In this document: positions 2 through 13,188 of the stretch, one piece after another
How the letters are laid out: the number at the start of each line of letters is the position of its first letter
Position numbering within the stretch: position 1 is the first letter of the stretch
Assembly: GCA_003452695.1 (NCBI GenBank)
Contig: DMNP01000062.1
Span: 1 to 13,188 of the forward strand
DNA: 13,188 nt
Reading direction: 5' to 3'
Origin: Eggerthellaceae bacterium
Lineage (GTDB): Bacteria > Actinomycetota > Coriobacteriia > Coriobacteriales > Eggerthellaceae
Notes under the pieces: generated by a model
The model's database searches: none
Told to the model about the DNA's origin: nothing
Seen by the model: the letters and a program-made list of their open reading frames with translations, nothing else
Translations under genes and position numbers: made by a program

Positions 2-787
2 ATGCCCGTATGGCAGGAATGGCTGCCCCTGGAAATGTGCAAGATCGTGAACGACCAGGCCGCCGAGATGTGCAAGCAATCGGAAGGACGCTTGCTGGCC
101 AATGCGGTCGTGCCGCCCTATGGCCGTCCCGAAGACATCGCCGAGATGAAGCGCTGTATCGAGGAGCTGGGCATGGTCGGCGTTCAGTTCGCCTGCTCGT
201 ACGGCAACAAGTTCCTGGACGACGAGCTGTTCGCCCCGATGATGAAGGCCCTGAACGACCTGAACGTGCCGGCTGTCATCCACCATACTCCGGGCCAGAA
301 CTCCTTCAAGAACTTCCAGGAGTACACGATTCTGCGCCGCGAGCTCGGCCGTATCACCGTGCAGGCCACGGCAGTCGGCCGCGAGGTGTATTCCGGCATG
401 TTCGCCAAGTACCCGAACCTGAAGTTCATCCACACCATGCTCGGTGGCAACTGGTTCGGTCTGATGGACCTGCTCGCCCCGCACAAGTCCACCAAGAAGA
501 AGGAGGCCATGAACCGCCTGGCTTCCAACGTGGGCCGCGACGAGTACGACGAGTTCCTGAAGAACAACATCTTCTTCGACGCGTGCCATCCCATGAGCTG
601 GGGCAAGGACCAGCTGGAGTGCGCCGTGAAGGTCTGCGGCGCCGACCACGTGCTGATGGGCTCGTCCTTCCCGGTGTTCTACGAGTGGCTGGCCCGCTCC
701 GTCGAAACCATCAACAGCCTGGACATAACGCCCGAGGACCGCGATCTTATCCTCGGCGGCAATGCCCAGCGCATCTTCAAGCTGTAA
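2..787 (+). CDS. Amidohydrolase family 2 (ACMSD-like decarboxylase/lactonase), 3' part only
   Basis: The last 261 residues read as a TIM-barrel amidohydrolase of the amidohydrolase-2 group, which includes ACMSD, gamma-resorcylate and 5-carboxyvanillate decarboxylases and the lactonase LigI. Visible landmarks are the family-like stretch LLANAVVPPYGRPEDIAEM, a strand ending IHHTPG (His94/His95), a strand ending FIHTMLGG (His144), and a C-terminal strand VLMGSSFP. The family's N-terminal metal-binding HxH lies about 60-90 residues before the first visible residue, and full proteins are usually about 320-350 residues. The ATG at position 2 is therefore probably internal and the gene is cut by the window edge. 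The usual (G)(S/T)DxP aspartate, a metal and catalytic ligand, is Ser222 here. In this setting decarboxylation or lactone opening of an aromatic acid is a plausible role, but reaction and substrate are not shown by the sequence. An MFS gene follows after 195 bp. Confidence 0.85.
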   Translation: MPVWQEWLPLEMCKIVNDQAAEMCKQSEGRLLANAVVPPYGRPEDIAEMKRCIEELGMVGVQFACSYGNKFLDDELFAPMMKALNDLNVPAVIHHTPGQNSFKNFQEYTILRRELGRITVQATAVGREVYSGMFAKYPNLKFIHTMLGGNWFGLMDLLAPHKSTKKKEAMNRLASNVGRDEYDEFLKNNIFFDACHPMSWGKDQLECAVKVCGADHVLMGSSFPVFYEWLARSVETINSLDITPEDRDLILGGNAQRIFKL

Positions 788-796
788 TGCGAGAAA

Positions 797-825
797 GGGA
801 GGTCGGGGAATCCACCCGGCCTCCC
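797..825 (+). terminator. Hairpin after the amidohydrolase gene, weak terminator candidate
   Basis: GGGAGG-T-CGGG pairs with CCCG-G-CCTCCC around a 7-nt loop (10 Watson-Crick pairs plus one G-U), starting 10 nt after the stop codon. No T-run follows: the next bases are TGGCGGGC. It may therefore be an mRNA 3'-end stabiliser or a partial terminator rather than a strong intrinsic one, and read-through into the MFS gene remains possible. Confidence 0.5.
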
Positions 826-879
826 TGGCGGGCGCCTTGTTCGCCGAAGCGGATTCTCCCGCATATTGAATGAGGGTAT

Positions 880-947
880 TGCGCATCGCCTGCAATGAAG
901 CTCCGGGTTGGTTTTCGCCCGACTCGCATGGAGGGAGGCGATGCGCA
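880..947 (+). repeat. Perfect 12-bp inverted repeat in the MFS leader
   Basis: TGCGCATCGCCT at 880-891 is matched exactly by its reverse complement AGGCGATGCGCA at 936-947, with a 44-nt spacer. The right arm ends 35 nt before the MFS start codon. It could form a long-looped 5'UTR hairpin or be a pair of regulator half-sites. The rest of the 195-bp gap (788-982) contains the hairpin at 797-825 and no gene that I can support. Confidence 0.6.
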
Positions 948-982
948 GCGTCCTCGATTGTTCCAGAAAAGGGGAAAGTATC

Positions 983-2398
983 ATGGCTAAACCTAACGAA
1001 GGTACGCCTCAGAAGACACCGGCCTATGCATGGCCGTGCTTGTTCGCATCGCTGTTCATAGCAGTGACGCTCGTATGGGAATGGCAGTGGATGCCCGGTG
1101 TGACCGGCGGTACCGCCACCAAGTGGTTCCTGTTCAACAACCCGGATATCCAGGCGATGTTCGGCTTCAGCCCGGCAGAGCTGCAGGGCGAGGCCCTCGG
1201 TGCCTGGTTCGGCCAGAACCTCGGCCGCACGATAGGCGTGGTCATGGGGAATTCCATGAGCTGGGTGCCCATCGGCGCCATAATCATGGCGTTCCCGACC
1301 ACCTTCCTGGTGCAGAAGATCGGCCCGAAGTGGTCTTCGATTATCGGCGTGTGCATCGCGCTCGTCGGCGCTATCATAACGACGCTCTGCCTGACCGGCA
1401 GCTGGACGGGCTATCAGGTCGGCCGTTTCGTGTTCGGCCTGGCGCTTGCCTGCACCATCGTATCCGGGCCCACCTGCGTGTCCATCTGGTTCCCGGGTGC
1501 CACCCGCGGCCGCGCCATGGCCATTTGGTCCACGTGGGCCCCGATCGGCATCTTCACCGTGAACATGTGGGGCGGCAACGTGCTCGACCTGTGCGGCGGC
1601 AACATCGTCACGCTGAACTGGCTCTGGATAATTCTCATGGCCGTGGCCGGCGTCGTGTTCTTCTTCGTGTTCCGCGAGCCGCGCGGCGACGAAGTCTCCG
1701 ACGTGTCTCCCGAGCGCAAGAAGCTGCGCGAGGTGCTGCCGTTCTTCAAGAGCCGCCAGCTGTGGTCGCTCATCATCCTGTTCGCCATCTTCAACTACAT
1801 GAACTATGCGTTCTCGCAGTACCTGAAGACATGGCTTGCCATGGACGTTGCATCAGGCGGCATGGGCTGGGAAGCCGGTCCTGCGGGCCTTGTCGGCGGC
1901 ATCCTGTGCGCATGTGGCATCCTCGGCCCCATCGGCGGCTGGATTATGGACAAGCTGCCGCGCGAGCGCAAGTGGATCGCCCCGCTGCTCGGCATCATCT
2001 CGCTCACGGTCTGCATGCTGCTGTCGTTCCGCGCGAACACGCCGATCTTCGCCTTGTACGCGCTGTTCTTCTGCATCGGCAACATGTTCCTGAACGGCTG
2101 CTGCCGCCCGATGGTGCCGACGTACGTGTTCAAGGGCGGTGCGACGGCCGTTGCGTTCGGCCTGTCGTTCCTGACCTGCGGCCAGTACCTCGGGCAGATC
2201 CCGACATCATGGGCGTTCCAGTACGGCACGGCTGCAGGCATGTCCTACAGCGACATCATGATGATGTTCTTCGTGCCGGTGGGCGCAATCGGCATCGTGT
2301 TCGGCCTGCTTATGAAGCCGTCAAAGCCCAAGGGCGATGCTGCCGGAGCTGCCGGAGCTGCCGAAGCCGCCGGCGGCGCCAAGCCGGAAGGCAAGTAG
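983..2398 (+). CDS. MFS transporter, probably for an aromatic or organic acid substrate
   Basis: This is a 471-residue polytopic inner-membrane protein with about 12 hydrophobic spans. The first span begins near residue 15, right after a short polar N-terminus. Residues about 90-140 (ending in a span with AFPTTFLVQKIGPKW) fit the TM2-loop-TM3 region of MFS proteins. The segment with GRFVFGLALAC and the short loop GATRGRAMAI fit the next spans. A charged central cytoplasmic loop (EPRGDEVSDVSPERKK, about residues 231-250) separates the two six-helix halves. The C-terminus is an Ala/Gly-rich tail. The ATG at 983 is chosen because AAAAGGGGAAAG lies just upstream; the open frame continues upstream but without a better signal. 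It lies between the amidohydrolase and a strong terminator. Uptake of the locus substrate is inferred from context only. Confidence 0.88.
   Translation: MAKPNEGTPQKTPAYAWPCLFASLFIAVTLVWEWQWMPGVTGGTATKWFLFNNPDIQAMFGFSPAELQGEALGAWFGQNLGRTIGVVMGNSMSWVPIGAIIMAFPTTFLVQKIGPKWSSIIGVCIALVGAIITTLCLTGSWTGYQVGRFVFGLALACTIVSGPTCVSIWFPGATRGRAMAIWSTWAPIGIFTVNMWGGNVLDLCGGNIVTLNWLWIILMAVAGVVFFFVFREPRGDEVSDVSPERKKLREVLPFFKSRQLWSLIILFAIFNYMNYAFSQYLKTWLAMDVASGGMGWEAGPAGLVGGILCACGILGPIGGWIMDKLPRERKWIAPLLGIISLTVCMLLSFRANTPIFALYALFFCIGNMFLNGCCRPMVPTYVFKGGATAVAFGLSFLTCGQYLGQIPTSWAFQYGTAAGMSYSDIMMMFFVPVGAIGIVFGLLMKPSKPKGDAAGAAGAAEAAGGAKPEGK
2339..2365 (+). repeat. 9-bp tandem repeat encoding the Ala-rich tail
   Basis: Two exact copies and one near copy of GCTGCCGGA lie in the last codons of the MFS gene and encode an Ala-Ala-Gly-type tail. 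It is low-complexity coding sequence that could vary in length by slippage without disturbing the membrane domain. Confidence 0.6.
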
Positions 2399-2441
2399 GC
2401 AAACGCGCGACGCCGGCAGGCGTCCGTGTAGTACAATTCGA

Positions 2442-2473
2442 GGGCCGCGCCGCAAATCGGCACGGCCCTTTCT
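2442..2473 (+). terminator. Intrinsic terminator of the MFS transcript
   Basis: GGGCCG-C-GCCG pairs with CGGC-A-CGGCCC around the 5-nt loop CAAAT, giving ten G-C pairs with one C/A mismatch. It is followed directly by TTTCT. It starts 44 nt after the MFS stop codon. This is the most convincing Rho-independent terminator in the window. Confidence 0.85.
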
Positions 2474-2504
2474 GCACCGTCGCATACAACCAAGGGAAGC
2501 GTAT

Positions 2505-2708
2505 ATGGACGCACCGTTCGACAAGCAAATCGGCGAAGCACCGCCCGCCCACCCGCAACAGGCGGCATCCGGGCACGATGGGCAGGCCGCGGCAGACGAG
2601 ACGACGGGGGCATCGCCCGGTACGGCGCAGGCCTGCGACGACTTGGGCCTGAACTCGCTTGAGGCAAACCTCGAGCGCTTCGGAATAAAGCCGCCGGGCA
2701 TGGCCTGA
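2505..2708 (+). CDS. Possible small hypothetical protein, 67 residues
   Basis: The ATG at 2505 follows a GGGAAG ribosome-binding-like sequence by 6 nt and opens a frame of 67 codons ending in TGA. I do not recognise the product. The first 40 residues are rich in Ala, Gln, Pro and Gly and look disordered. The last 25 (DDLGLNSLEANLERFGIKPP) could form a short amphipathic helix. There is no signal peptide, membrane span or Cys motif. It sits alone between the MFS terminator and the promoter of the LuxR-type gene, so it would need its own promoter; TACAAT at 2432-2437 is a possible -10, but it lies upstream of the terminator hairpin. A chance frame in GC-rich DNA cannot be excluded. Confidence 0.4.
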   Translation: MDAPFDKQIGEAPPAHPQQAASGHDGQAAADETTGASPGTAQACDDLGLNSLEANLERFGIKPPGMA

Positions 2709-2720
2709 CGAAAAAAGCCT

Positions 2721-2767
2721 CTGCAAATTAATCCCGTATCGATTACAATGCAGCAATGTCGATACGG
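2721..2767 (+). promoter_or_regulatory. Candidate promoter and operator of LuxR-type regulator 1
   Basis: TACAAT at 2744-2749 is a good -10 candidate with a weak -35 (CTGCAA, 2721-2726) 17 bp upstream. It lies inside a perfect 9-bp inverted repeat, CCGTATCGA at 2734-2742 and TCGATACGG at 2759-2767, spaced by 16 bp. Occupancy of this palindrome would cover the -10 and the transcription start. The regulator's start codon is 51 bp further on, so autoregulation is the natural reading (inference). Confidence 0.6.
2727..2737 (+). repeat. Direct repeat ATTAATCCCGT, copy 1
   Basis: This 11-bp sequence recurs exactly at 4411-4421. This copy overlaps the left arm of the palindrome in the regulator promoter; the other is upstream of molybdopterin oxidoreductase 1. 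A shared binding site for one regulator is possible. Confidence 0.5.
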
Positions 2768-2817
2768 CGCCTGGCGCCATTGGTCGGCAGAGGGGGGAGA
2801 GTCGATAGGGGCAGCTC

Positions 2818-4278
2818 ATGGCATCCGAGGCTCAGGATCAGACGGTTTCTTTTTCATCTACAGAGCTGCTTGCTCTCGGCGGGTTCGCACTGTACTTCAG
2901 CTGGATGTTCATCGTGTTCTTCTGGCTGTTCTGCGAATTTCCTCCCGAGGCGCCTACGGAACTGCGCGATTTCGTGCAGTTCTTCGTGTTCGCGGCAGTG
3001 CCAATCGGCTATCTCGCCCTGAACGCCCTGGCCAAACGCTCTTCGTTCAACGTGTTCTCGCTTCCGTGCAAGATTGCCGAAGCGGTTTGCGCATCGTTGC
3101 TGCCCACTGTCGCGCTTGCGATGTATCTGGGGCTGATGGTGCCGCTGCCCATCGTGTGCGCGGCGAATTTCCTAGCCGGAGCCGCCGCCGCTGCTATCCA
3201 GCTTTCGTGGTTGGACGTGTATTCGCGCCTGCGGACCAGTTACTACAGTCGTTTCACCGGGTTGTCGCTGTTCGCGGGCGGTTTGCTGTTCTCGTTGGCG
3301 GCGTTTTCCCCTGCGTTCATGCAGCCGCTGTCCGCCATCGTGTTCATCGTCATAAGCGTCGTCCTGATTTCCTACGCTTCGCACCATGCGCCCCGCAACG
3401 ACGAGCGCGCGCCGCTCGAATCCATCGACAGCACTTGGCGTTTCACCACCGAAATCGAGCCGTCGTTTTTCGTGTTCGGAGTCGTGTTCGGCATCACGTT
3501 CGTGTTCCTCTTCAACAACGGTGCGGAACCGGTTATCCTCGGGCTCATCGCAACGCTCGTGGGGTCGTTGGCGGTGGCCATTCTCTCCATCGTTGACAAG
3601 CAGTTTTCCATTACGGTGTACCAGCGGGCTCTCGTCGTCGTTACGGTGTGCGCGTGCATCGTCGTTCCGTTCGTTTCCTATCCGGCCCAGATAGCATGCA
3701 GCTGCGTCGTCACAGCGTCCTGGGCCATGTTCATGGCTATAAACTATGGCTACGTGGTAAAGAAATGCGTGATAGCGTGGGAGTCGCCGCTGTTTCGCCA
3801 GGCGCCCCTGCGCTTGGTTTTCCCCGCATTCGGCTTTGCGGTGGGCTGGGCGCTGGCGTCCTTCCTCACGGTGCAGTTCGGCGCGCATTCCGATGTCTTC
3901 ATGATCATGCGGCTCGTGGTCGCCGTGTTGCTGGTCGCCACGATCATGATTTTCTTCCCGTCCAACGAGCACCATACGACCGACGGCCTTTCGCCGGATG
4001 GCGTGAAGGTGCAAAAGACCGTGGTCACCGTGGACAAGACGGAAAAGGAGCTGTTCGAGGAGCGGTGCGCTGCCGTGGCGAAGCTGTATCAGCTCAGCCC
4101 GCGCGAGACCGAGATCCTGGGCTATCTGGCGCGCGGCCGCAACGCCGCCTACATCCAAGAGGAGCTCGTCATATCTCCCCACACGGTGAAGAGCCACATT
4201 TACAACATTTATCGCAAGCTCGACATCCACAGCCAGCAGAAGCTGATGGACTTCGTGGAGGATTTCCCCCTGGACTAG
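2818..4278 (+). CDS. Membrane-spanning LuxR-type transcriptional regulator 1
   Basis: This 486-residue protein has an N-terminal region of about 390 residues with roughly 12 hydrophobic segments. A polar linker of about 35 residues follows, then a C-terminal LuxR/GerE helix-turn-helix from about residue 426, recognisable by LSPRETEILGYLARG, the recognition-helix region SPHTVKSHIYNIYRKL and the HSQQKLMDF end. No response-regulator receiver domain is present. This architecture is known in Eggerthellaceae, where such regulators sit beside dehydroxylase genes and respond to their substrates; sensing through the membrane domain is inferred. The ATG at 2818 follows AGGGG at the proper distance. It lies directly upstream of, and in the same direction as, molybdopterin oxidoreductase 1, its likely target. 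It is a paralogue of the minus-strand regulator at 7276-8694. Confidence 0.9.
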   Translation: MASEAQDQTVSFSSTELLALGGFALYFSWMFIVFFWLFCEFPPEAPTELRDFVQFFVFAAVPIGYLALNALAKRSSFNVFSLPCKIAEAVCASLLPTVALAMYLGLMVPLPIVCAANFLAGAAAAAIQLSWLDVYSRLRTSYYSRFTGLSLFAGGLLFSLAAFSPAFMQPLSAIVFIVISVVLISYASHHAPRNDERAPLESIDSTWRFTTEIEPSFFVFGVVFGITFVFLFNNGAEPVILGLIATLVGSLAVAILSIVDKQFSITVYQRALVVVTVCACIVVPFVSYPAQIACSCVVTASWAMFMAINYGYVVKKCVIAWESPLFRQAPLRLVFPAFGFAVGWALASFLTVQFGAHSDVFMIMRLVVAVLLVATIMIFFPSNEHHTTDGLSPDGVKVQKTVVTVDKTEKELFEERCAAVAKLYQLSPRETEILGYLARGRNAAYIQEELVISPHTVKSHIYNIYRKLDIHSQQKLMDFVEDFPLD

Positions 4279-4285
4279 CGGGAAA

Positions 4286-4310
4286 GCTCTCATACCAGAA
4301 GTATGAAAGC
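4286..4310. repeat. Hairpin with TCATAC/GTATGA core, copy 1
   Basis: Ten-base arms (9 of 10 pairing) flank the loop CAGAA. The 17-nt core TCATACCAGAAGTATGA differs from the core of the large hairpin at 12599-12639 at only two loop positions. It begins 8 nt after the stop codon of LuxR-type regulator 1, but no T-run follows on the plus strand, so a terminator role is doubtful. It could be an operator or a dispersed palindromic element. Confidence 0.55.
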
Positions 4311-4317
4311 GTGATGA

Positions 4318-4339
4318 GCATACCCATCTGGGGATATGC
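4318..4339. promoter_or_regulatory. Imperfect palindrome upstream of molybdopterin oxidoreductase 1
   Basis: A 22-bp element begins GCATACCC and ends ATATGC; 7 of 11 positions pair. It contains ATACCCAT (4320-4327), which also occurs upstream of the second MFS gene at 12778-12785, followed in both places by a nearby CTG and ACCCTG. It may be a regulator site; no -10/-35 pair is evident here. Confidence 0.3.
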
Positions 4340-4410
4340 ACCCTGCCTTCCCATGCTGAAATAGCCCCAGCTTCGAGGGGGAGGCAAACGTGGTTGGGGG
4401 GAAATCAACC

Positions 4411-4430
4411 ATTAATCCCGTGGTTACGGG
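4411..4430 (+). promoter_or_regulatory. ATTAATCCCGT copy 2 with short palindrome
   Basis: The 11-bp repeat shared with 2727-2737 runs into the perfect 5-bp inverted repeat CCCGT-GGTT-ACGGG (4417-4430). It lies about 95-115 bp before the start codon of molybdopterin oxidoreductase 1, a suitable position for an activator site. That it is the target of LuxR-type regulator 1 is inferred from the shared motif. Confidence 0.45.
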
Positions 4431-4524
4431 GAAGATACCCGCGACTTCTCGAGGTCAGCCGGAACGAGTACCGGCGCTGCGCGTTTCGTGTACGTGCGCG
4501 CAGAGATGTGAGAGAGGAGTTGCG

Positions 4525-6906
4525 ATGGTAGAGACTACTATTGAGTCCAAGGACCGCGACGACATCGGTGCGACAAAGGAGGAGAACCAGTTCAACTTCG
4601 GCGCCGGCGAGGCGCACGAGGTGGACCCCCGCTGGAAGCACCCGGGCGAGTGGCAGTACATGGAAGACGGGATGCTCGTCACCCGCACTTCCGTGTGGTC
4701 GGCGCCTGGTTGCCACGAGGGCTGCGGCGTTCTGGTGTATTCCGACCCGGAGACCGGGCGCTTCATCAAATGCGAGGGCGATCCGGACGACCCGTACAAC
4801 CGCGGCGCGCTGTGTCCCCGTTGCCTGGCCTTCAAGCAAGTAGAGTTCCATCCCGACCGTATCCTGTACCCGATGAAGCGCGCCGGCGAGCGCGGCGAGA
4901 ACAAGTGGGAGCGCATATCGTGGGACGAGGCGCTGGAAACCTGCTATAAAGAGTTCCGCCGCATCGCGATGACCTACGGCGGCGATTCCATCCACTGCCT
5001 GCGCGGCACCGCCCGCGACAACCAGTGGCAAGTCGGCCGCATGGCCAATACCTTCGGATCCCCGAACGAGTACGGCTTCCTGTCCGGCACCGCGTGCTAC
5101 CTGCCGCGCCTGTCGCTGATGATCATGACCTACGGCGGCATGCTCATCGCCGACTTCTCGCAGTTCTCCGCGCTGCGCTACGACGACCCCGAGTGGACGT
5201 GCCCCGAGTGCACGATCGTCTGGGGCTGCAACCCCACCATTTCCAACCCCGACTTCTTCATGGGCCATTGGGTGACCGACGCCATGAAGCTTGGCTGCAA
5301 GCTCATCTCCGTCGAGCCGCGCGTTACCTGGCTGGCGGCCCACGCAGACATCCACCTGCAGCTGCGTCCCGGCACCGACACCGCGCTGGCACTCGGCATG
5401 ATAAAGGTGATCATCGACGAGGACCTGTACGACCACGACTTCGTGGAGAAGTGGACCTACGGCTTCGACGAGCTGGCCGAGCGTGCCCGCGAGCTTTCGC
5501 TCGACGAGGTGGAGAAGATGACGTGGGTCCCGAAGGACAAGATCGTCGAAGCTGCGCGCCTGTTCGCCAATTCGCATCCCGCAAACGTCGTGTGGGGCCT
5601 GGCCGTGGACATGCAGTCGCAGGGCACCCCGTGCGCGCAGGCCATCGCCGCGCTGTGGACCATCACCGGCAACCTGGACGTGCCGGGCGGCAACGTCATC
5701 GGCCAGGCATGCTGGGGAATCGACCAGCCGAACTGGACCGGGTGCTGGGGCTACGACGAGCTGCTCACGCCCGAGGAAGACGCGCGCCGCATGGGCTTCG
5801 ACATCTACCCGATGTTCCGCGTCGGCTTCAAGGAGGTCTGCTCCGACGTGGCCATCAAGTCGTGGGAAAGCGGCGAGCCCTATCGCTTCAAAGCCGCGTA
5901 TTTCGCCACGAGCAACTTCCTGGCCTGCATGGGCGCCCAGACGCCCAAGCAGCTGGAATGGTACAAGACGCTCGAATTCACGGCGTTCGCCGACCTGTTC
6001 ATGACGCCGACCATCATGGCGCTTGCCGACGTCGTGCTGCCGGCGGCTACCTACGAGGAGCGAGACGGCTTCGGCGGCTTGAATCCCTATCGTATTAGCT
6101 GCATCACCAAGGCAATCGAGCCGGTGGGCGAGTGCCGCGACGACATGACCATCTTCCTGCAGTTGGGCAAGCGCCTGGCGACTCCGCGCAACGAGGATAT
6201 CGCCTGGCCATGGGACACCGTGGAGGAGATGTGGGACTATGCGCTCGAAAACGGCGGCTTCACGTGGGAGGAGCTGCGCGATTCCGTGTGGAAGTATCCC
6301 GAGTTCGAGTACCGCAAATACGAGAAGGGCTTGCTGCGCCCCGATGGTCAGGTGGGGTTCGCCACCGAGACCGGACGTGCCGAGATCTATTCGATGGTCT
6401 TCCATCATACCAGCTGGTCAGGTCTCGACCCGTTGCCCAGTTACGTCGAGCCTGTCGAGAGCCCCTACAGTGCCCCAGAGGACGTGGAGGAATACCCCTA
6501 TATTGTCACGTCGGGCGCCCGCGTCATCCATTTCTTCCACTCCGAGCAGCGCCAGATTGCCAAGCTGCGCCGCCTGCATCCTGATCCGCTGTGCTACATC
6601 CATCCGGAAACGGCCAAGAAGCACGGCATCGAGGACGGAGAGTGGTTCTGGCTCGAGAACAAACATGGCAAGTGCAAGTACAAGGCATCGTACAACGACA
6701 CCTACGATCCGCGCGTCATGCAATGCGAGCACGGTTGGTGGTTCCCCGAACGCACCGACGAAGCCGAGGAATGCGTTGAAGACGAGAACCGCGGGCTCTA
6801 CGGCGTGTTCGAGTCGCAGATCAACAATCTCATCCCGTTCGATGCAGGTGTTTCCGGTTTCGGTTCCAACTACAAGTGCATGATGTGCAAGATATACAAG
6901 GACTAG
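4525..6906 (+). CDS. Molybdopterin (bis-MGD) oxidoreductase 1, catechol-dehydroxylase-like
   Basis: This is a 793-residue catalytic subunit of the DMSO-reductase superfamily. Domains in order: an N-terminal Fe-S-type region with C63-x3-C67 and LC97-PRC100; the large molybdopterin domain with a candidate Mo ligand Cys191 (SGTACYLPR), and EPRVTWLA ... LQLRPGTD (about 263-284) fitting MGD binding; and a C-terminal MGD-binding domain from about residue 658 (FHSEQRQ, then HGWWFPE near 736). The first Cys of the classic CxxCxxxC is Ala. There is no Tat signal, so it is probably cytoplasmic. The family context suggests reductive removal of a hydroxyl from a catechol or pyrogallol-type aromatic; the substrate is unknown. 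The ATG at 4525 follows GAGAGGAG and gives an N-terminus matching its paralogue; a GTG at 4390 behind GGGGGAGG is a less likely start. No ferredoxin gene follows, so it may share the one at 11539. Confidence 0.9.
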   Translation: MVETTIESKDRDDIGATKEENQFNFGAGEAHEVDPRWKHPGEWQYMEDGMLVTRTSVWSAPGCHEGCGVLVYSDPETGRFIKCEGDPDDPYNRGALCPRCLAFKQVEFHPDRILYPMKRAGERGENKWERISWDEALETCYKEFRRIAMTYGGDSIHCLRGTARDNQWQVGRMANTFGSPNEYGFLSGTACYLPRLSLMIMTYGGMLIADFSQFSALRYDDPEWTCPECTIVWGCNPTISNPDFFMGHWVTDAMKLGCKLISVEPRVTWLAAHADIHLQLRPGTDTALALGMIKVIIDEDLYDHDFVEKWTYGFDELAERARELSLDEVEKMTWVPKDKIVEAARLFANSHPANVVWGLAVDMQSQGTPCAQAIAALWTITGNLDVPGGNVIGQACWGIDQPNWTGCWGYDELLTPEEDARRMGFDIYPMFRVGFKEVCSDVAIKSWESGEPYRFKAAYFATSNFLACMGAQTPKQLEWYKTLEFTAFADLFMTPTIMALADVVLPAATYEERDGFGGLNPYRISCITKAIEPVGECRDDMTIFLQLGKRLATPRNEDIAWPWDTVEEMWDYALENGGFTWEELRDSVWKYPEFEYRKYEKGLLRPDGQVGFATETGRAEIYSMVFHHTSWSGLDPLPSYVEPVESPYSAPEDVEEYPYIVTSGARVIHFFHSEQRQIAKLRRLHPDPLCYIHPETAKKHGIEDGEWFWLENKHGKCKYKASYNDTYDPRVMQCEHGWWFPERTDEAEECVEDENRGLYGVFESQINNLIPFDAGVSGFGSNYKCMMCKIYKD

Positions 6907-6927
6907 GAATTCCGTACGCCTGAAGGT

Positions 6928-6968
6928 CGGGCCGTTCGGCAAGCGGATGATAGCCAGGCGGCCCGTTT
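6928..6968 (+). terminator. Possible terminator of molybdopterin oxidoreductase 1
   Basis: CGGGCCG at 6928-6934 pairs perfectly with CGGCCCG at 6959-6965, extended inward by two G-U pairs, with a loop of about 20 nt and a trailing TTT. It begins 21 nt after the stop codon. The long loop and short T-run make it a moderate candidate. Confidence 0.5.
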
Positions 6969-7021
6969 ACCGAGCACGCGGAATGCAGCGCCAGCATAGC
7001 CAATCTGGGCAAGAATCGAGA

Positions 7022-7194
7022 TTGAAATGGACAAAATGTAACAAAGTTAACTGCAAGGCTGCCTTTGATTGGTCGATAACGTAGTTGTTTCTTTCGTTTA
7101 CCCAGTTCAACTCATGTCGTCATCGGTATGGCTTGTCGACGGGGCTTCGAAAAACGCGTTTCGACGTTAACATCGTTACATTTTGTCAATTCAA
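7022..7194. repeat. Long imperfect inverted repeat between convergent genes
   Basis: The left arm (7022-7051) and the reverse complement of the right arm (7166-7194) share an exact 13-bp block (GTTACATTTTGTC in the right arm) and an exact GTTAAC, both at the same 3-nt spacing, plus further partial matches outward. The 114-bp interior has no gene. The arms are much more AT-rich than their surroundings. Each arm also holds a small palindrome (TAAC-AAA-GTTA in the left arm). It could be a miniature transposable element, a pair of regulator sites, or a structured RNA. Apart from this and the hairpin at 6928, the 369-bp gap 6907-7275 shows a 10-bp inverted repeat (CGAAAAACGC at 7148, GCGTTTTTCG at 7198) and no gene. 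Confidence 0.6.
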
Positions 7195-7275
7195 AGTGCG
7201 TTTTTCGCGCAGCGTTGGTTTTTGGGCATAGTCTTCCGTTTATCGAAAAGGATGGCAAAGGAACCGCGGCGGTGA

Positions 7276-8694
7276 TCAGGCTCTCTCCAGAAGGTCGAGT
7301 AGTTCCTGCTGGGAATGGATGCCCAGCTTGCGGTAGATGTTGGAAATATGGGTCTTGGTGGTGCTCTCGCTGATGAACAGCTTCTCGGCGATGTGCTTGG
7401 CATTGCGGCCGCGCACGAGGTAAGTCAGCACCTCGGATTCGCGGGGGGACAGCTTGTAGCGCTCCGTCACGGCTTTGCAGGTTTCCGATAGGTTGGCGTC
7501 GCGCGGTTCGTGCATGTCAACCAGCGCCAGCGTCTTGTAGCCCGGCGTCTTGGATTCGGCGTCGAAGGGCAGGAAGAAGAGCGCCGTCAATATGAATACG
7601 GCCACGATTGCGAGCGGTATGTACATCTCGAAAACGGGGGTGTCGTTCGACGAGATGCCAGCCACGCCGACGGCGAGGCCAATCGTGAAACCGATGTTTG
7701 CCGGCAGCTTCCCGCGGAGAGACGAGTACAGCATGGAGTAATCGCAATGGTTGGCTAGGTCCGTGAGCGACCCGCCGTTCATCGTGCGGAACATGAACCA
7801 GAATACGATGATTACGAACAGCGCGACGTTCGCAAGTGGGCCAACCGGGAACACGAGCAGGATGAGCGCGCACGACACGAATGCTCCGCATACGCGCGCC
7901 CAGCCTGCAAACTGTATCCATTTGCCGCGCCCGAACAGCACGGAGAACGCGAGGTCGACGAAGACGGCAACCGCCATGGTTCCCAGCAGCAGAGAGTTGC
8001 TCAGGTGGTACAGGAGCATGAACGCGTATCCGAAGATTACGGAAATCACGATGATGACCAGGTCGACGTGCCAAGCTGCACGAAAGTACGCTTGAACGGG
8101 TTTCACGGGCTTGTCCTCCAGAAGGTCGCAGCGCGGGGTGATGAACGCCAGCAGCGCAGTGCTCGCGCATAGCAGCAGTATGGAGATTGCGCTAGCACCA
8201 GCATTGTCGAGCAAGAACGTCGTTGCCAGAAATATGACGCCACCCGCGCAGAAGATGGTTCCATGCGCAAGCACGCCGCGGTTCAGGTACCCATGGGTTG
8301 CCAGGTCCTCCCAGAGCATGAATCCGAAGCCGATCGAGCAGCCGCAGAGGAAGCATGCAATGTAGAACGCCCATAGGGCAACGAGCACGCCAGTTACCTC
8401 GGAAACGGTTATCAGCAACGGCAGTGGAAGCGCCAGCAGCAAACTTATAAGGTGAAGCAACCGGTTATGGCCTACGGCCACGCTATCGGCTTTCCTGAAC
8501 CAGAAGAGCAGTGCGAGCGTGACCGCGATGCTGCCCAAGAAGAACACGACCTGTCCGGTATGCAGCGCGATGAAGTCGATGCGTTCCGGCGCGAACATGA
8601 AGAAGCCGAAGAACGAGATGAGATACCACGCATAGTACAAGCTGAAACCACAGATGATGGTCAGCTGCATGAAGCCGAGTCGTTTAACGCTCAT
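7276..8694 (-). CDS. Membrane-spanning LuxR-type transcriptional regulator 2
   Basis: This 472-residue protein has the same architecture as the regulator at 2818-4278: about 12 hydrophobic segments over the first 380 or so residues, a polar linker, and a LuxR/GerE helix-turn-helix from about residue 415 (LSPRESEVLTYLVRG, SESTTKTHISNIYRKL, HSQQELLDLLERA). The membrane parts have diverged much more than the DNA-binding ends, as expected if the two sense different ligands. The start at 8694 is chosen because the minus strand reads GGGGGAGGTCCCG just before ATG; the frame stays open further upstream without a comparable signal. It is divergent from molybdopterin oxidoreductase 2, which is its probable target. 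A minus-strand TAAAAT about 50-60 nt before the start could be its -10, with no clear -35. Confidence 0.9.
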   Translation of the reverse strand: MSVKRLGFMQLTIICGFSLYYAWYLISFFGFFMFAPERIDFIALHTGQVVFFLGSIAVTLALLFWFRKADSVAVGHNRLLHLISLLLALPLPLLITVSEVTGVLVALWAFYIACFLCGCSIGFGFMLWEDLATHGYLNRGVLAHGTIFCAGGVIFLATTFLLDNAGASAISILLLCASTALLAFITPRCDLLEDKPVKPVQAYFRAAWHVDLVIIVISVIFGYAFMLLYHLSNSLLLGTMAVAVFVDLAFSVLFGRGKWIQFAGWARVCGAFVSCALILLVFPVGPLANVALFVIIVFWFMFRTMNGGSLTDLANHCDYSMLYSSLRGKLPANIGFTIGLAVGVAGISSNDTPVFEMYIPLAIVAVFILTALFFLPFDAESKTPGYKTLALVDMHEPRDANLSETCKAVTERYKLSPRESEVLTYLVRGRNAKHIAEKLFISESTTKTHISNIYRKLGIHSQQELLDLLERA

Positions 8695-9123
8695 CGGGAC
8701 CTCCCCCTCTTGAGGTCGCGCAGAACCATTAGATTGCGATGTGCATTTTAGTTTGGCAGCAGCATATTGAGTCGAATGGAAAACATGAAAGTTCACTACG
8801 GCTCTAATACTGGTCGCATGAGTATCCTGAACAGTTGCTTCCTGGTGTTTGCAGCCTCCGGTGCGATTTTGCAAAACCCCAGGAAAACGCATGGCACTCA
8901 GAGTATGACCCATCCTCTTCGGCGGTGTAAATCTGAGAATGATGCTTTTGTCGGGAAGCCGTGTTTCCTGCATGCGGCTAGTCTTCGATGCGAGCGTACC
9001 CGAGGGGGAGTGCGAGAGGGGGGGGTAACTCAAGCTGCCAGGGGGCGGCACCTCGGTTTGGACGGCGGCTCGTCCAGTTTCGCTTCAGTCCATCCGTTTG
9101 ATACGAGAGAGAGTGATGTAGCT
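8695..9123. other. 429-bp divergent regulatory region
   Basis: This stretch lies between the divergent regulator 2 and molybdopterin oxidoreductase 2, and I see no supportable gene in it. It holds the perfect palindrome TTTTGCAAAA (8867-8876). It also holds an imperfect inverted repeat, CCTGGTGTTTGC at 8841-8852 against GCAAAACCCCAGG at 8871-8883 (one mismatch, one bulge). Near the oxidoreductase start a GAGAGAGAG run (9105-9113) supplies a weak ribosome-binding site and overlaps an ATG-TAG (9116-9121) that would be a one-codon frame. I cannot place the oxidoreductase promoter with confidence. Confidence 0.5.
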
Positions 9124-11535
9124 GTGACTCAAAGAATTGACATTCCTCACGACAGCGATTCATCGAAAGAAGTACGTCCGACGTTCTTCAACGAGCCTCC
9201 CGTCATGTACACGGGCGGCGACGTGCCGTGGCAGTGGGAAGAAGACGGCATGATCTGCACCCGTTCCGCTGCTTGGTCGGCGCCTGGCTGCCATGACGGC
9301 TGCGGTGTAATCGTGTACACCGACAAGGAGACCGGCAAGTTCATCAAGGTCGAAGGCGACGAGGAGAACCCCTATTACCAGGGCCGCCTGTGCATGCGCT
9401 GCCTGGACGTGGCCGAGGCAATCTACCATCCCGACCGCCTGCTCTACCCGATGAAGCGCGATCCCAAGGACCGCGGCAAGGCCGACAAGTGGACCCGCAT
9501 CACGTGGGAAGAGGCCTACGACATGATCGACGAGAAGTTCACGGCCATTCGCGACGAGTTCGGCGGCAAGTCGATTATCTTCGCATCCGGCACCGGGCGC
9601 GTCACCCCGCCGATCAATGCCCGTTTGGGCTACGCGCTGGGCTCCATCCAGTATTCGTACTTCCATTCCGGCAATGCGTGCTACGTCCCGCGCGTGGCCG
9701 CCGCCAACACCATCATGGGTTGTTACACCTGCCCGGACTTCAGCATGCAGTTCCCGGATCGCTACGACAACCCCGAGTGGGTTGCCCCGAAGAATATCTT
9801 CATCTGGGGCAACAACCCGCTCATCGCCAATGCAGACGGCAATCTGGGCCACTGGGTCGTGGACTGCATGCAGCGCGGCTCCAAGCTGGTCGTCGTCGAT
9901 CCGCGCCTGACCTGGCTCGCATCGCGCGCCGAGCTGTGGCTGCAGCTGCGCCCCGGCACCGACAGCATGCTGGCGCTAGCCATGAGCAAGTACATCATCG
10001 AGAACAACCTCTACGACGCAGATTTCGTGGACAAGTGGTGCTACGGTTTCGACGAGTACTACGAGGCCGTGAAGCCCTACGACCTGGATCAGGCTGCCGA
10101 GGTCTGCTGGCTGGAGAAGGAAGACATCATCCGCGCTTCCGAGCTTATGGCCGAGCAGCCCACCGCCGTGCAGTGGGGCCTTGCGCTGGACATGAACCTG
10201 CAGTGCATCACCGCATCGCAGGCCGTCCACAACCTGTGGTGCATCACCGGCCAGGTCGACCGTCCGGGCGGCATGATCACCGTTCACGACCCGTACAACA
10301 CCGAAGTCTGGCTGCCGCCCGATCCCCGCGAGGTCTTCACCCCGCAGCAGGAAAAGGAGCGCATCGGTTCCACCTACGAGATGATCACGAACTCCGGCAT
10401 GGTCCAGTGCCAGGCCGACAGCATGATCGACCAGCTGGTCACGGGCCGTCCGTTCAAGATTCATGCAGCGTGGATCCAGTCCACGAACCCGCTGGCGTGC
10501 TGTGCCCAGGACCCCGAGCCCCGCGTTGAAAAGGGCCTGAAGAACTGCGATTTCGTCGTCGGCGTCGACTGCTTCATGACCCCGACGCTCATGGCGAACT
10601 GCGATGTCGTGCTGCCGCTGTGCTTCTATCCGGAGCGCGAGGGCCTGCGCTCGGTGTGGTACTACATCCAGAACACGAACAAGGCTTGCGAGCCGATGGG
10701 CGAGTCCAAGGACGACTTCCAGATCAACTGGGAGCTCGGCCGCCGCTGGAACAAGGACCTCTGGCCGGGCGAGACGCTCGAGGAGTACTTCAGCTACCTC
10801 ATCCAGGAAGCTGGCATCACCTACGACGACAGCCGCAAGCTGAACTGGATCTACCCTGAGTTCCACTACTTCAAGTACGCCAAGGGCGAGCAGCGCCCCG
10901 ACGGCCAGCTCGGCTTCAACACCATGACCGGCCGCATCGAGCTGTACTCGCTGCTGCTTGCGCAGTGGGGCCAGAAGCCGCTGCCGTACTATGCCGAGCC
11001 GCCGATGAGCCCGTACAGCCAGCCCGAGCTGTACAAGGAATACAACTTGGTGCTGACCACCGGCGCCCGCCACTACGAGTCGTTCCATTCCGAGCATCGC
11101 CAGATGAACCGCCTGCGCTCGGCGTATCCCGACCCGCGGTTCGAGATCCATCCCGACGCCGCGGCAGAGCGCGGGATCGAGGAAGGCGACTGGTGCTGGA
11201 TTGAAAGCCCGATTGGCCGCTGCCGCGAGCGCGCGCACATCACGCCGATCGTCGACCCGCGCGTCGTGCAGGCCGACCACGGCTGGTGGTTCCCCGAGGC
11301 AGACCCCGAGGACCAGGGCGAGGGCTGCTTCGCCACGTATGCCCGCAACATCAACGTCGTCTTGCCTTCCGAATGCGGAGACACGGGCTTCGGCAACCAG
11401 TCCAAGTGCTACCTGTGCAAGGTGTACAAGTGCGAGCTCGACGAAATCGCGCTGCCGGCTCCCGAGAACCCGAAGGAGCGCTTCGCCGATGGATCGTTCC
11501 GCAACTTCACCTACGAAGCAGAGATGGAGGCGTAA
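9124..11535 (+). CDS. Molybdopterin (bis-MGD) oxidoreductase 2, catechol-dehydroxylase-like
   Basis: This 803-residue paralogue of the enzyme at 4525-6906 shares long aligned blocks with it: WSAPGCHDGCGV (C56-x3-C60), LC90-MRC93, SGNACYVPR with candidate Mo ligand Cys186, DPRLTWLA ... LQLRPGTD (about 259-280), FHSEHRQ and HGWWFPE. It again lacks the first Cys of the classic Fe-S motif and has no Tat signal, so a cytoplasmic reductase is expected. It ends with a C762-x2-C765-KVYK motif like its paralogue, but then has a 34-residue extension. The chosen start is GTG 9124, since the frame has no ATG before the conserved region and this gives an N-terminus of similar length to the paralogue. The ferredoxin-like gene begins 3 nt after its stop, so the two are translationally coupled and probably form a complex. 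The reaction is inferred to be reductive dehydroxylation of an aromatic; the substrate is unknown. Confidence 0.9.
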   Translation: MTQRIDIPHDSDSSKEVRPTFFNEPPVMYTGGDVPWQWEEDGMICTRSAAWSAPGCHDGCGVIVYTDKETGKFIKVEGDEENPYYQGRLCMRCLDVAEAIYHPDRLLYPMKRDPKDRGKADKWTRITWEEAYDMIDEKFTAIRDEFGGKSIIFASGTGRVTPPINARLGYALGSIQYSYFHSGNACYVPRVAAANTIMGCYTCPDFSMQFPDRYDNPEWVAPKNIFIWGNNPLIANADGNLGHWVVDCMQRGSKLVVVDPRLTWLASRAELWLQLRPGTDSMLALAMSKYIIENNLYDADFVDKWCYGFDEYYEAVKPYDLDQAAEVCWLEKEDIIRASELMAEQPTAVQWGLALDMNLQCITASQAVHNLWCITGQVDRPGGMITVHDPYNTEVWLPPDPREVFTPQQEKERIGSTYEMITNSGMVQCQADSMIDQLVTGRPFKIHAAWIQSTNPLACCAQDPEPRVEKGLKNCDFVVGVDCFMTPTLMANCDVVLPLCFYPEREGLRSVWYYIQNTNKACEPMGESKDDFQINWELGRRWNKDLWPGETLEEYFSYLIQEAGITYDDSRKLNWIYPEFHYFKYAKGEQRPDGQLGFNTMTGRIELYSLLLAQWGQKPLPYYAEPPMSPYSQPELYKEYNLVLTTGARHYESFHSEHRQMNRLRSAYPDPRFEIHPDAAAERGIEEGDWCWIESPIGRCRERAHITPIVDPRVVQADHGWWFPEADPEDQGEGCFATYARNINVVLPSECGDTGFGNQSKCYLCKVYKCELDEIALPAPENPKERFADGSFRNFTYEAEMEA

Positions 11536-11538
11536 ATC

Positions 11539-11898
11539 ATGGCTGATAAGGCATATGGTCTTCTGATCAACTACGAATACTGCACCGGCTGCATGTCCTG
11601 CGAGATGGCCTGCGCCGTGGAACACGACATCCCGGTTGGGCAGTACGGCATCAAGATGGAAGAGATCGGCCCCTGGCAGATTGACAAGAAGAAGTGGCAG
11701 CTGGATTGCGTGCCCGTTCCCACCGACATGTGCGACCTGTGCGCCGAGCGCGTCGGCAAGGGCAAGAAGCCCACGTGCGTGAAGCACTGCCAGTCGCTGT
11801 GCATGCAGTATGGCACGGTGGAGGAGCTGGCTGCCCAGTTGGCAACCGCCAAGACCAAGAGCGTGCTGTTCGTGCCGAAGTCCGGCACGGTCGACTAG
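11539..11898 (+). CDS. 4Fe-4S ferredoxin-like electron-transfer subunit
   Basis: This 119-residue protein has two cluster-binding Cys sets: C15-x2-C18-x2-C21-x3-C25 near the N-terminus and C65-x2-C68-x11-C80-x3-C84 further on, with extra Cys57 and Cys88. The second spacing is that seen in DmsB/PhsB-type iron-sulfur subunits of molybdopterin oxidoreductases, but this protein is shorter, consistent with two rather than four [4Fe-4S] clusters. GGAGG lies 9 nt before the ATG, inside the end of the preceding enzyme gene, and the intergenic gap is 3 nt. It most likely delivers electrons to molybdopterin oxidoreductase 2, and could also serve oxidoreductase 1, which has no partner gene. No membrane anchor subunit is encoded here, so the electron donor is unknown. 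Confidence 0.92.
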   Translation: MADKAYGLLINYEYCTGCMSCEMACAVEHDIPVGQYGIKMEEIGPWQIDKKKWQLDCVPVPTDMCDLCAERVGKGKKPTCVKHCQSLCMQYGTVEELAAQLATAKTKSVLFVPKSGTVD

Positions 11899-11929
11899 AG
11901 CTCGATCTGATCGCCAAGCGACTTGTCGA

Positions 11930-11964
11930 GGTTGCGCCCCTGCGGTCGAAAGCGGGGCGCAACC
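11930..11964 (+). repeat. Perfect 11-bp hairpin between ferredoxin and zinc-ribbon genes
   Basis: GGTTGCGCCCC at 11930-11940 pairs exactly with GGGGCGCAACC at 11954-11964 around a 13-nt loop. There is no following T-run, so it looks like an intercistronic stability or attenuation element that could lower expression of the downstream small genes relative to the enzyme pair. Confidence 0.65.
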
Positions 11965-12010
11965 ACGGCAGGGGAGCTGGAGCAAGCAACGGAAAGTTGG
12001 GAACGTTTCG

Positions 12011-12223
12011 ATGTGCGGCGGCTATACGCGGGTATGCGTAAGGTGCGGAATGTGCGGCAAGGTTGACCAGCGCCCTCTTGCCGCAAGCGGCGTGTGCGTC
12101 CGATGCGGGCACGAGAACGCCCCGGATGCAGAACGGTGCGATGCGTGCGGGTTGCCGCTGCCCAAGGCGCCGGGAAGCTCGGGAGCGGAGGGATTGCACC
12201 CGGGATTGCCGTCCATCGAATGA
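12011..12223 (+). CDS. Small zinc-ribbon protein
   Basis: This 70-residue protein begins MCGGYTRVCVRCGMCG and carries a zinc-ribbon-type set CVRC ... CDAC (two CxxC knuckles 12 residues apart), followed by a Pro/Gly-rich tail. The N-terminal Cys cluster could be a second, shorter metal site. It has no other recognisable domain. The ATG at 12011 has only a moderate ribosome-binding sequence (GGAAAG/GGGAACG). It lies 112 bp after the ferredoxin gene, behind a hairpin, and 13 nt before the next gene, so it is probably cotranscribed with both. A role as an accessory or metal-handling factor for the molybdoenzyme is speculative. Confidence 0.65.
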   Translation: MCGGYTRVCVRCGMCGKVDQRPLAASGVCVRCGHENAPDAERCDACGLPLPKAPGSSGAEGLHPGLPSIE

Positions 12224-12236
12224 CTGGAGGATTCGA

Positions 12237-12590
12237 ATGATCTCTAAAGACGATATAAAACCCATCGAAGTCGGGCAGTCGCTTTCCGTTGACGAGGCTG
12301 TTTCCCCGCGCAACTCGCTCGGGGGGAAGCCCGAGGGCGAAGGCGCCGTCGAAATCTACTGTACCGTGTGCGGGCAGCCTGCCACAGACGGCCGTTTCAC
12401 CGGCTACGGGCCGAGCATGGAGTGGTGGTACACGATAACCGGGACGCTCGACGAAATCCAGTGGGTCTATCAGACCGACAAGAATTACTGGGACAAGATG
12501 GTCGCCCCGCTCGTGAAGTGCGGTTGCGGACAGGGCACGCCTCCATGCGATCCCATGAAATGGAGCGTTCGCCAAATTCCCGCACAATAG
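12237..12590 (+). CDS. Hypothetical Cys-containing protein, 117 residues
   Basis: I do not recognise this protein. The ATG at 12237 follows GGAGG by 6 nt, a strong start. It begins with an acidic polar stretch of about 40 residues, then YCTVCGQPA (a CxxC knuckle), an aromatic segment (MEWWYTITGTL, then WVYQTDKNYWDKM), and KCGCGQGTPPC near the end. The Cys set CxxC ... CxC ... C suggests one bound metal. There is no signal peptide or membrane span. It is the last gene of the molybdopterin oxidoreductase 2 cluster, directly before the terminator hairpin. A pathway-specific accessory, chaperone or substrate-binding role is possible but unproven. Confidence 0.7.
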   Translation: MISKDDIKPIEVGQSLSVDEAVSPRNSLGGKPEGEGAVEIYCTVCGQPATDGRFTGYGPSMEWWYTITGTLDEIQWVYQTDKNYWDKMVAPLVKCGCGQGTPPCDPMKWSVRQIPAQ

Positions 12591-12598
12591 CTCCTGCC

Positions 12599-12646
12599 CT
12601 TAAAGCCGTCTCATACCGGCAGTATGAGACGGCTTTAAGCACTTTC
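12599..12646 (+). terminator. 18-bp perfect hairpin ending the oxidoreductase 2 cluster
   Basis: Arms 12599-12616 and 12622-12639 are perfect complements around the 5-nt loop CGGCA. The downstream bases GCACTTTCTTT give a T-rich tail, displaced by about 4 nt. It starts 8 nt after the last stop codon. The centre holds the TCATAC/GTATGA core also found at 4290-4306, so the element may be a dispersed palindrome acting as a terminator. Confidence 0.75.
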
Positions 12647-12819
12647 TTTATCCCGAAAATGACCCTGTTGATGCGATGTCCCGCCTTTCCAGACAACTAC
12701 ATTGCCCTCGGGGGAATGCATGGGCATTGCGAAAGGAGGTTTACCAACAACAGCGCCAGAGATGCAGGCGTAATTGAATACCCATATCTGTAACCCTGTG
12801 TAAAGGATAGAGGTGCATT
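12647..12819 (+). promoter_or_regulatory. Leader region of the second MFS gene
   Basis: No supportable gene is present. It contains a strong Shine-Dalgarno-like GAAAGGAGGT (12731-12740) with no start codon at a usable distance. It also contains ATACCCAT (12778-12785), shared with the region upstream of oxidoreductase 1, and TGTAACCCTGTGTAAA just after it. The promoter of the MFS gene is presumably here, but no clear -10/-35 pair stands out. Confidence 0.35.
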
Positions 12820-13188
12820 ATGGAGGGGAAATCCCAAGAACCGATGACAAAGTCGGGCCCGCTTACTCCGACTGCGTCGTCATACATTACAAAATCTGAA
12901 GAAAAGACTCCGCGCTATGCATGGGTCGTTTGGATTGTCACGTTTCTCGTGAGTTTCGCTGCGCCGCTCGGCCAGTTCAAGCTGGTGTCCATTCCGCTGT
13001 GGTTCATCTATGTTCCAGGCGTCAGCCCCGAAGGCGGCTTCATGCTGGATGCAGCCGGCTTCGGCATGCTCATGACCTGCGTGAGCCTGATCGGCATCGT
13101 GCTCGCATTCCCGGCCGCGTTCATCTGCCGCAAGCTTGGCCTGAAGACGACGGTCCTCGTCGCCACGCTCGGCGTCATCATCGGCGGC
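12820..13188 (+). CDS. MFS transporter, 5' part only
   Basis: The frame from ATG 12820 is open to the window end (123 codons). AGAGGTG lies 5 nt before the ATG. A polar N-terminus of about 30 residues is followed by TPRYAWVVW and a first membrane span (about residues 32-52). A loop with PLWFIYVPGVSPEGG comes next, then a second span (about 78-98) with AFPAAFICRKLGLK, which is the MFS loop 2-3 pattern, and the start of a third. The layout, including the Tyr-Ala-Trp before TM1 and AFP(A/T)(A/T)F at the end of TM2, matches the transporter at 983-2398, so the two appear to be paralogues. It is separated from the oxidoreductase 2 cluster by a terminator hairpin. A substrate uptake role is inferred from context. 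Confidence 0.85.
   Translation, partial: MEGKSQEPMTKSGPLTPTASSYITKSEEKTPRYAWVVWIVTFLVSFAAPLGQFKLVSIPLWFIYVPGVSPEGGFMLDAAGFGMLMTCVSLIGIVLAFPAAFICRKLGLKTTVLVATLGVIIGG

What the first reader, a model, noticed from the sequence alone, without database searches (positions are those of the whole stretch)
2..13188. Candidate multi-step aromatic degradation island: decarboxylase-like enzyme, two dehydroxylase-like enzymes, two transporters, two membrane regulators
Two regulator-molybdoenzyme modules sit side by side with a decarboxylase/lactonase-family gene and two MFS genes. Gut Actinobacteria convert ellagate-type polyphenols by lactone opening and decarboxylation followed by stepwise dehydroxylation. 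This gene set would fit such a route (for example early urolithin steps) or a gallate/pyrogallol-type pathway. The substrate is a hypothesis.
Basis: inference. Interest (0 to 1): 0.75.

Follow-up and report, generated by a model that had tools for sequence, protein, structure and literature searches.

The report
Ellagic acid to urolithin gene cluster
This DNA carries most of an already described gut-bacterial gene set that turns the plant compound ellagic acid into urolithins, but one of its two key enzyme genes is a hybrid of two different genes and is probably an assembly error.

Summary
The described genes are there. The locus is an eam (ellagic acid metabolism) cluster, characterised biochemically in PMC12771579 (December 2025), here from an unidentified relative of gut Eggerthellaceae. 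Gene 2-787 is Eah (ellagic acid to urolithin M5): 74% identical to its Gordonibacter sp. 28C counterpart; the start lies outside the window. Gene 9118-11535 is 89% identical to the extra eam dehydroxylase of Ellagibacter isourolithinifaciens, which Gordonibacter sp. 28C lacks; by elimination it is Eadh3 (urolithin C to isourolithin A). The 9 genomes of 138 with an Eadh3 copy of at least 80% identity all carry Eadh1/2-type genes, which 21 of the 138 have. The other "dehydroxylase", 4525-6906, is a hybrid: up to residue ~375 it is one Eadh1/2-type enzyme (X2), from ~390 another paralogue (X3). The join lies in a word the paralogues share, no relative found spans it at above 77% identity, and the 4Fe-4S partner gene that follows 27 of 27 comparison copies is missing. 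An assembly chimera is likeliest; a natural recombinant is not excluded. New member of a known kind.

The parts
2..787 (+). Eah orthologue (ellagic acid lactone hydrolase/decarboxylase), 5' end outside the window
   Evidence: PF04909; 75.5% to Ellagibacter, 73.9% to Gordonibacter sp. 28C and 90.4% to UBA3686
983..2398 (+). MFS transporter, probably for ellagic acid/urolithins
   Evidence: PF07690; 89-91% to the MFS next to Eah in G126, roe deer MAG and UBA3686, 52% to Ellagibacter
2818..4278 (+). membrane LuxR-type regulator 1
   Evidence: PF00196, 12 hydrophobic segments; lies directly before X2 in at least 10 relatives
4525..5660 (+). 5' part of an X2-type (Eadh1 or Eadh2) dehydroxylase
   Evidence: 90-91% DNA identity to X2 of the roe deer MAG, G126 and UBA3686; N-half tree inside X2 clade, support 99
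5650..5695 (+). hybrid junction (residues 375-390), in the conserved WTITGNLDVPGGN word
   Evidence: informative sites 198:3 before and 3:220 after; DNA matches of X2 type end at 5692, of X3 type begin at 5635 or 5650
5696..6906 (+). 3' part of an X3-type dehydroxylase (paralogue close to X1); no 4Fe-4S gene follows
   Evidence: first 165 bp (5679-5843) identical to G126 C68, the rest 86.4%; C-half groups with G126 C68 and P0001; partner missing
7276..8694 (-). membrane LuxR-type regulator 2, of the Eadh3 module
   Evidence: PF00196, 10 hydrophobic segments; divergent from the Eadh3 gene in UBA3686, roe deer MAG and others
9118..11535 (+). Eadh3 orthologue: molybdenum-dependent urolithin C 8-dehydroxylase (inferred)
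   Evidence: 88.8% to the third eam dehydroxylase of E. isourolithinifaciens, 99.0% to UBA3686; absent from Gordonibacter sp. 28C, best 49%
11539..11898 (+). 4Fe-4S electron-transfer partner of Eadh3
   Evidence: weak Fer4 hits and DmsB-type match; 78-93% conserved behind Eadh3 in close relatives
12237..12590 (+). small conserved protein (117 aa) of unknown role, always seen behind Eadh3
   Evidence: no Pfam/NCBIfam hit; 70-95% identity to 10 relatives aligned
12820..13188 (+). MFS transporter 2, cut by the window end
   Evidence: PF07690, below cut-off for the fragment; 82-94% in most Eadh3 loci

Best explanation
The window is part of an eam locus with an attached Eadh3 module. Inferred route: an MFS transporter brings ellagic acid in; Eah, a metal-dependent amidohydrolase-superfamily enzyme, opens a lactone and decarboxylates it to urolithin M5; cytoplasmic bis-MGD molybdenum dehydroxylases with small 4Fe-4S partners then remove catecholic hydroxyls one by one. 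Eadh1 and Eadh2 (C4-OH, C10-OH) lead to urolithin C, and Eadh3 (9118-11535) removes C8-OH to give isourolithin A. Membrane LuxR proteins sense the substrate and switch the genes on. X1 (one of Eadh1/2) is expected just upstream, outside the window. The ORF 4525-6906 is X2 up to residue ~375 and X3 after ~390, most likely an assembly chimera across a word shared by the paralogues. Shown here: gene content, orthology, co-occurrence, the hybrid. Shown in print for other strains: the reactions and induction. Inferred: the same reactions here, and that the hybrid is an artefact.
For: Eah orthology. Eadh3 by elimination: Ellagibacter's cluster holds X1, X2 and the window's 89% orthologue, Gordonibacter sp. 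28C only X1 and X2, and the paper assigns Eadh1/2 to both and Eadh3 to Ellagibacter alone. Eadh3 at 80% or more is in 9 of 138 family genomes, all 9 among the 21 with X1/X2-type enzymes (8e-9 if independent, which they are not). Hybrid. Missing 4Fe-4S partner: 27 of 27 comparison copies have it 12-142 bp downstream, the window does not.
Against: No expression, enzyme or metabolite data for this strain. Figures and supplements of the paper were not seen, so which of X1/X2 is Eadh1 or Eadh2 is unknown and the Eadh3 assignment rests on elimination. An 80% Eadh3-like gene also exists outside the eam cluster in Gordonibacter sp. Marseille-P2775. The X2/X3 hybrid ORF is in frame and full length and gives a reasonable model (pTM 0.80), as a real gene would. 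A 165-bp tract identical to G126 X3 looks like strain mixing, but a 173-bp tract at 99.4% also exists in the X2 half, so such tracts are not peculiar to the join.
Confidence: 0.8

Rival explanations
1. The locus is the eam cluster, and 4525-6906 is a real gene made by recombination between X2 and X3 at their shared motif, giving a dehydroxylase with a changed substrate pocket.
For: The ORF is intact and in frame, the join lies in a homologous position, and the model folds. X2 and X3 occur together in genome G126. The locus order LuxR1, X2, then Eadh3 module resembles genome G107.
Against: No full-length relative: best 73% over the whole protein (best 120 of 6768 listed), best 77% of 95 over residues 340-450; none of the listed matches in 138 family genomes crosses the join at above 74% DNA identity. 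It lacks the 4Fe-4S partner. Other hybrid ORFs at other points exist in the protein catalogue (P0017, P0122), as expected of assembly errors.
Confidence: 0.2
2. The genes act on another polyphenol (gallate, pyrogallol, catechin, a catechol acid), and the resemblance to eam is only family-level.
For: Eggerthellaceae genomes hold dozens of such paralogues with different substrates; function is not tested here.
Against: Identity to the eam enzymes (74-75% Eah; 89% Eadh3; about 97% for the X2 part at most positions) is far above the 40-51% typical of the other paralogues, and the gene order is that of eam.
Confidence: 0.08
3. The left (eam core) and right (Eadh3 module) halves come from different organisms and do not belong together at all.
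For: The hybrid ORF sits exactly between them; the stretch 6907-7276 matches none of the fetched loci; in UBA3686 the Eadh3 module is on another contig than Eah and X2.
Against: In Ellagibacter, G107, the roe deer MAG and G115 the Eadh3 module is on the same contig as eam genes. Both halves are closest to the same group of uncultured Eggerthellaceae.
Confidence: 0.3

Closest known systems
eam gene cluster of Ellagibacter isourolithinifaciens DSM 104140 (PMC12771579)
   Same: Eah, MFS, LuxR, Eadh3 with 4Fe-4S partner, small protein and MFS (75%, 52%, 47%, 89%, 78%, 71%, 83%)
   Different: X2 is intact and lies after the Eadh3 module there; in the window an X2/X3 hybrid lies before it, without its 4Fe-4S partner, and the second LuxR gene is in the opposite orientation
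eam gene cluster of Gordonibacter sp. 28C (PMC12771579)
   Same: Eah (74%), MFS, LuxR, X2-type N-terminal half
   Different: two dehydroxylases only (X1, X2), no Eadh3 orthologue (best 49%)
Acetylene hydratase 2e7z (closest solved structure by sequence)
   Same: same molybdopterin enzyme fold family (E 5e-86 and 7e-77)
   Different: non-redox hydration of acetylene; no partner, regulator or transporter of this kind (recalled)

Membership tests
eam gene cluster (Bae et al. 2025) | Eah homologue | tested here: met
   74-90% identity to eam Eah proteins
eam gene cluster (Bae et al. 2025) | two Eadh1/Eadh2-type dehydroxylases | tested here: inconclusive
   X1 would lie upstream of the window: it directly precedes Eah in 11 of 15 loci examined (1 has an MFS between, 1 has none, 2 end too soon). 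X2 is present only as the N-terminal part of a hybrid
eam gene cluster (Bae et al. 2025) | MFS transporters and LuxR regulator | tested here: met
eam gene cluster (Bae et al. 2025) | 4Fe-4S gene beside each dehydroxylase | tested here: not met
   present behind 9118-11535; absent behind 4525-6906
eam gene cluster (Bae et al. 2025) | induction by ellagic acid | not testable with these tools
   needs the strain
Eadh3 | orthology to the Ellagibacter-only eam dehydroxylase | tested here: met
   88.8% over 802 residues; which Ellagibacter gene is Eadh3 was inferred by elimination
Eadh3 | no signal peptide (cytoplasmic) | tested here: met
   no twin-arginine motif in the first 60 residues by a simple pattern; no signal-peptide predictor was run
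Eadh3 | C8-OH dehydroxylation of urolithin C | not testable with these tools
   needs enzyme assay
X2-type Eadh (for 4525-6906) | full-length orthology | tested here: not met
   residues 421-793 only about 26-58% identical to X2 proteins
10-12-TM LuxR regulators (PMC9734109) | N-terminal 10-12 TM segments plus C-terminal LuxR HTH | tested here: met
   12 and 10 hydrophobic segments by a hydropathy scan, PF00196 at the C-terminus

The most novel reading that the evidence does not exclude
4525-6906 is a real, recombined dehydroxylase: the X2 N-terminal half joined to the C-terminal half of X3, an uncharacterised paralogue clade near X1. It would be a natural experiment in moving regioselectivity between urolithin dehydroxylases, and X3 itself could be a urolithin dehydroxylase of a position for which no enzyme is known (the paper names C3-OH as unassigned).
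Probability: 0.17. Interest if true: 0.6.

Novelty: new member of a known kind. Interest (0 to 1): 0.35.

Why it matters
It adds another uncultured, probably animal-gut, lineage to the set of bacteria with the genes for ellagic acid to isourolithin A, and points to a small conserved protein tied to Eadh3 and to an uncharacterised paralogue clade (X3) as test objects. It is also a caution: catechol dehydroxylase families have so many paralogues sharing motif-length DNA words that metagenome contigs and protein catalogues contain hybrid ORFs, which would mislead anyone predicting substrate from such sequences.

Tried and rejected
Gallate/pyrogallol route: rejected on identity and gene order. Selenate/sulfur oxyanion reductase: NCBIfam hits are far below their curated cut-offs. 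MoA as a simple third eam paralogue (first idea, since it is 64-69% identical to both X1 and X2): rejected when sliding identity showed two halves. Deciding which of X1/X2 is Eadh1: not possible, the accessions are in supplements that were not open to me; passage searches of PMC12771579 and PMC13236738 gave none. Structure of the small protein: mean pLDDT 49, not used; no fold search was run. Structure of the hybrid: pTM 0.80, with low pLDDT at 387-390 and 402-407; it does not tell gene from artefact. A pair of inverted 21-bp sites at 7031-7051 and 7166-7186 (no match expected by chance) was sought in 208 fetched loci and not found. The Rfam, PHROGs and PADLOC libraries and the phage, plasmid and E. 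coli collections were not searched.

Mistakes mended: in the tree two outgroup rows (Ei_MoB, Gs28C_L020) were wrong-frame ORFs; the trees were redone, where the node that joins the window's C-half to G126 C68 and P0001 carries no printed support (one search gave 1.0), the 21-member clade around it has 100, and the X1 clade without it 95. In the Eah alignments the rows from minus-strand loci are wrong; I used only the UBA3686, Gs28C, G126 and G035b rows. The matches are near-identical stretches with mismatches allowed, not exact runs.

Full report
Observation. No genome is held for the window, so its host is unknown; the closest DNA is 84-93% identical, in uncultured Eggerthellaceae.

What it is. 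PMC12771579 (I read the abstract, Results, Discussion and part 1 of Methods; figures and supplements were not seen) describes the eam cluster: Eah turns ellagic acid into urolithin M5; Eadh1 (C4-OH) and Eadh2 (C10-OH) lead to urolithin C; Eadh3, in Ellagibacter isourolithinifaciens, removes C8-OH to give isourolithin A; MFS, LuxR and 4Fe-4S genes accompany them. The window's 2-787 gene is 75.5% identical to the Ellagibacter gene and 73.9% to that of Gordonibacter sp. 28C. In 138 genomes of the family, 18 have an Eah at E below 1e-60.

Which dehydroxylases. Whole-genome searches give Gordonibacter sp. 28C two close eam-type dehydroxylases, which I call X1 (before Eah) and X2, and Ellagibacter the same two plus an orthologue of the window's enzyme B at 89% between them; the best match of B in Gordonibacter sp. 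28C is 49% (the match lists are capped). Since the paper gives Eadh1/2 to both and Eadh3 only to Ellagibacter, B is Eadh3 by elimination. Nine of 138 family genomes have B at 80% or more; all nine are among the 21 that have X1/X2-type enzymes at E below 1e-270. The chance of that for independent genomes is 8e-9; related genomes are not independent. Two of the nine (G063, G115) gave no Eah at 1e-60, perhaps because they are incomplete.

The hybrid. Enzyme A was first puzzling: 64-69% identical to X1 and X2 alike. Sliding identity solved it. Up to residue ~360 it is 73-100% identical, mostly above 90%, to X2 of Ellagibacter, Gordonibacter, UBA3686 and the roe deer MAG; from residue ~421 it is 90-100% identical to two proteins of a third group, X3 (genome G126 contig 68, and P0001), and about 26-58% to X2. 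With roe deer X2 and G126 X3 as parents, sites that tell them apart go 198 to 3 for X2 in residues 1-385 and 220 to 3 for X3 in 386-793; the best break is between residues 375 and 390. Trees of the halves disagree in the same way.

Is the hybrid real? Against: (a) The join is in the conserved WTITGNLDVPGGN word, where X2 and X1/X3 genes share most bases; a piece of about 32 bases around it matches other paralogues in many family genomes. (b) Of the matches listed in 138 family genomes, X2-type ones stop at 5692 and X3-type ones start at 5635 or 5650; the only listed matches that run through are X1-type at 72-74%. (c) In a catalogue of 5.8 billion proteins the best full-length identity is 73% (7999 candidates scored, 120 of 6768 hits listed) and the best over residues 340-450 is 77% of 95 hits. 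(d) All 27 comparison copies of X1, X2 or X3 whose 3' flank was at hand have a 4Fe-4S gene 12-142 bp downstream; the window has none before LuxR2. (e) The first 165 bp after the join are identical to G126 X3, the next 1062 bp only 86.4%, which looks like a switch between strains; but a 173-bp tract at 99.4% also exists in the X2 half, so this is weak. (f) Other hybrids exist in the catalogue: P0017 (Gordonibacter pamelaeae X2 to about residue 300, then another paralogue) and P0122 (X1-like to about residue 545, then an MFS protein). For: the ORF is open and in frame, the join keeps homologous register, and the predicted structure is acceptable. I judge an artefact about three to four times likelier than a natural recombinant.

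Gene order. Eah-MFS-LuxR1 followed within 600 bp by X2 is seen in several relatives (LuxR1 then X2 in at least 10 of those annotated), so the left half is ordinary. LuxR2 divergent from Eadh3, then 4Fe-4S, small protein and MFS, is the order in UBA3686, the roe deer MAG and SIG38, so the right half is ordinary too. The two lie on one contig in Ellagibacter, G107, G115 and the roe deer MAG. The window's link between them is therefore plausible but unproven.

How it works. From the paper and families: uptake by MFS, lactone opening and decarboxylation by Eah, reductive dehydroxylation by molybdenum enzymes that need a catechol, electrons through 4Fe-4S partners, activation by membrane LuxR proteins. 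PMC9734109 (passages seen) shows three such LuxR proteins switching on their neighbouring dehydroxylases in response to substrate; PMC11887054 (abstract and section 5 seen) shows that accessory genes are needed for activity of E. lenta dehydroxylases. All of it is inference for this strain.

Verdict. A homologue of a recently published cluster: a new member of a known kind. The surprising element is the hybrid gene, more probably an artefact than biology.

Noticed in passing
window 7031-7051 (-) and 7166-7186 (+): Two inverted copies of GTTAACNNNGTTACATTTTGT between enzyme A and LuxR2, none expected by chance; not found in 208 fetched loci. They look like an operator but lie downstream of both neighbouring genes.
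   Followed up: partly
window 12237-12590: Small 117-aa protein with CxxC and CxCG...C motifs, conserved behind Eadh3 in the 10 relatives aligned (70-95%), no family hit; possible Eadh3 accessory factor.
   Followed up: partly
L171:3951-6479 (G126 contig 68), P0001: X3: a dehydroxylase group close to X1 but apart from it, followed by its own 4Fe-4S gene and an ORF resembling a membrane LuxR; substrate unknown.
   Followed up: partly
P0017, P0122: Two other hybrid proteins in the public catalogue, one X2 joined to another paralogue, one X1-like joined to an MFS protein.
   Followed up: partly
window 9118-11535 against 7276-8694: Eadh3 is 99% identical to UBA3686 while the divergent LuxR2 next to it is only 60% identical, a strong contrast in rate or origin.
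   Followed up: no
window 2-787: The loop that I recall as ending in a catalytic Asp in related decarboxylases reads GSSFP in the window, UBA3686 and Gordonibacter sp. 28C Eah, so a Ser stands there.
   Followed up: no
L146:10518-12948 (genome G017): X2 copy split into two overlapping frames, a frameshift or sequencing error.
   Followed up: no
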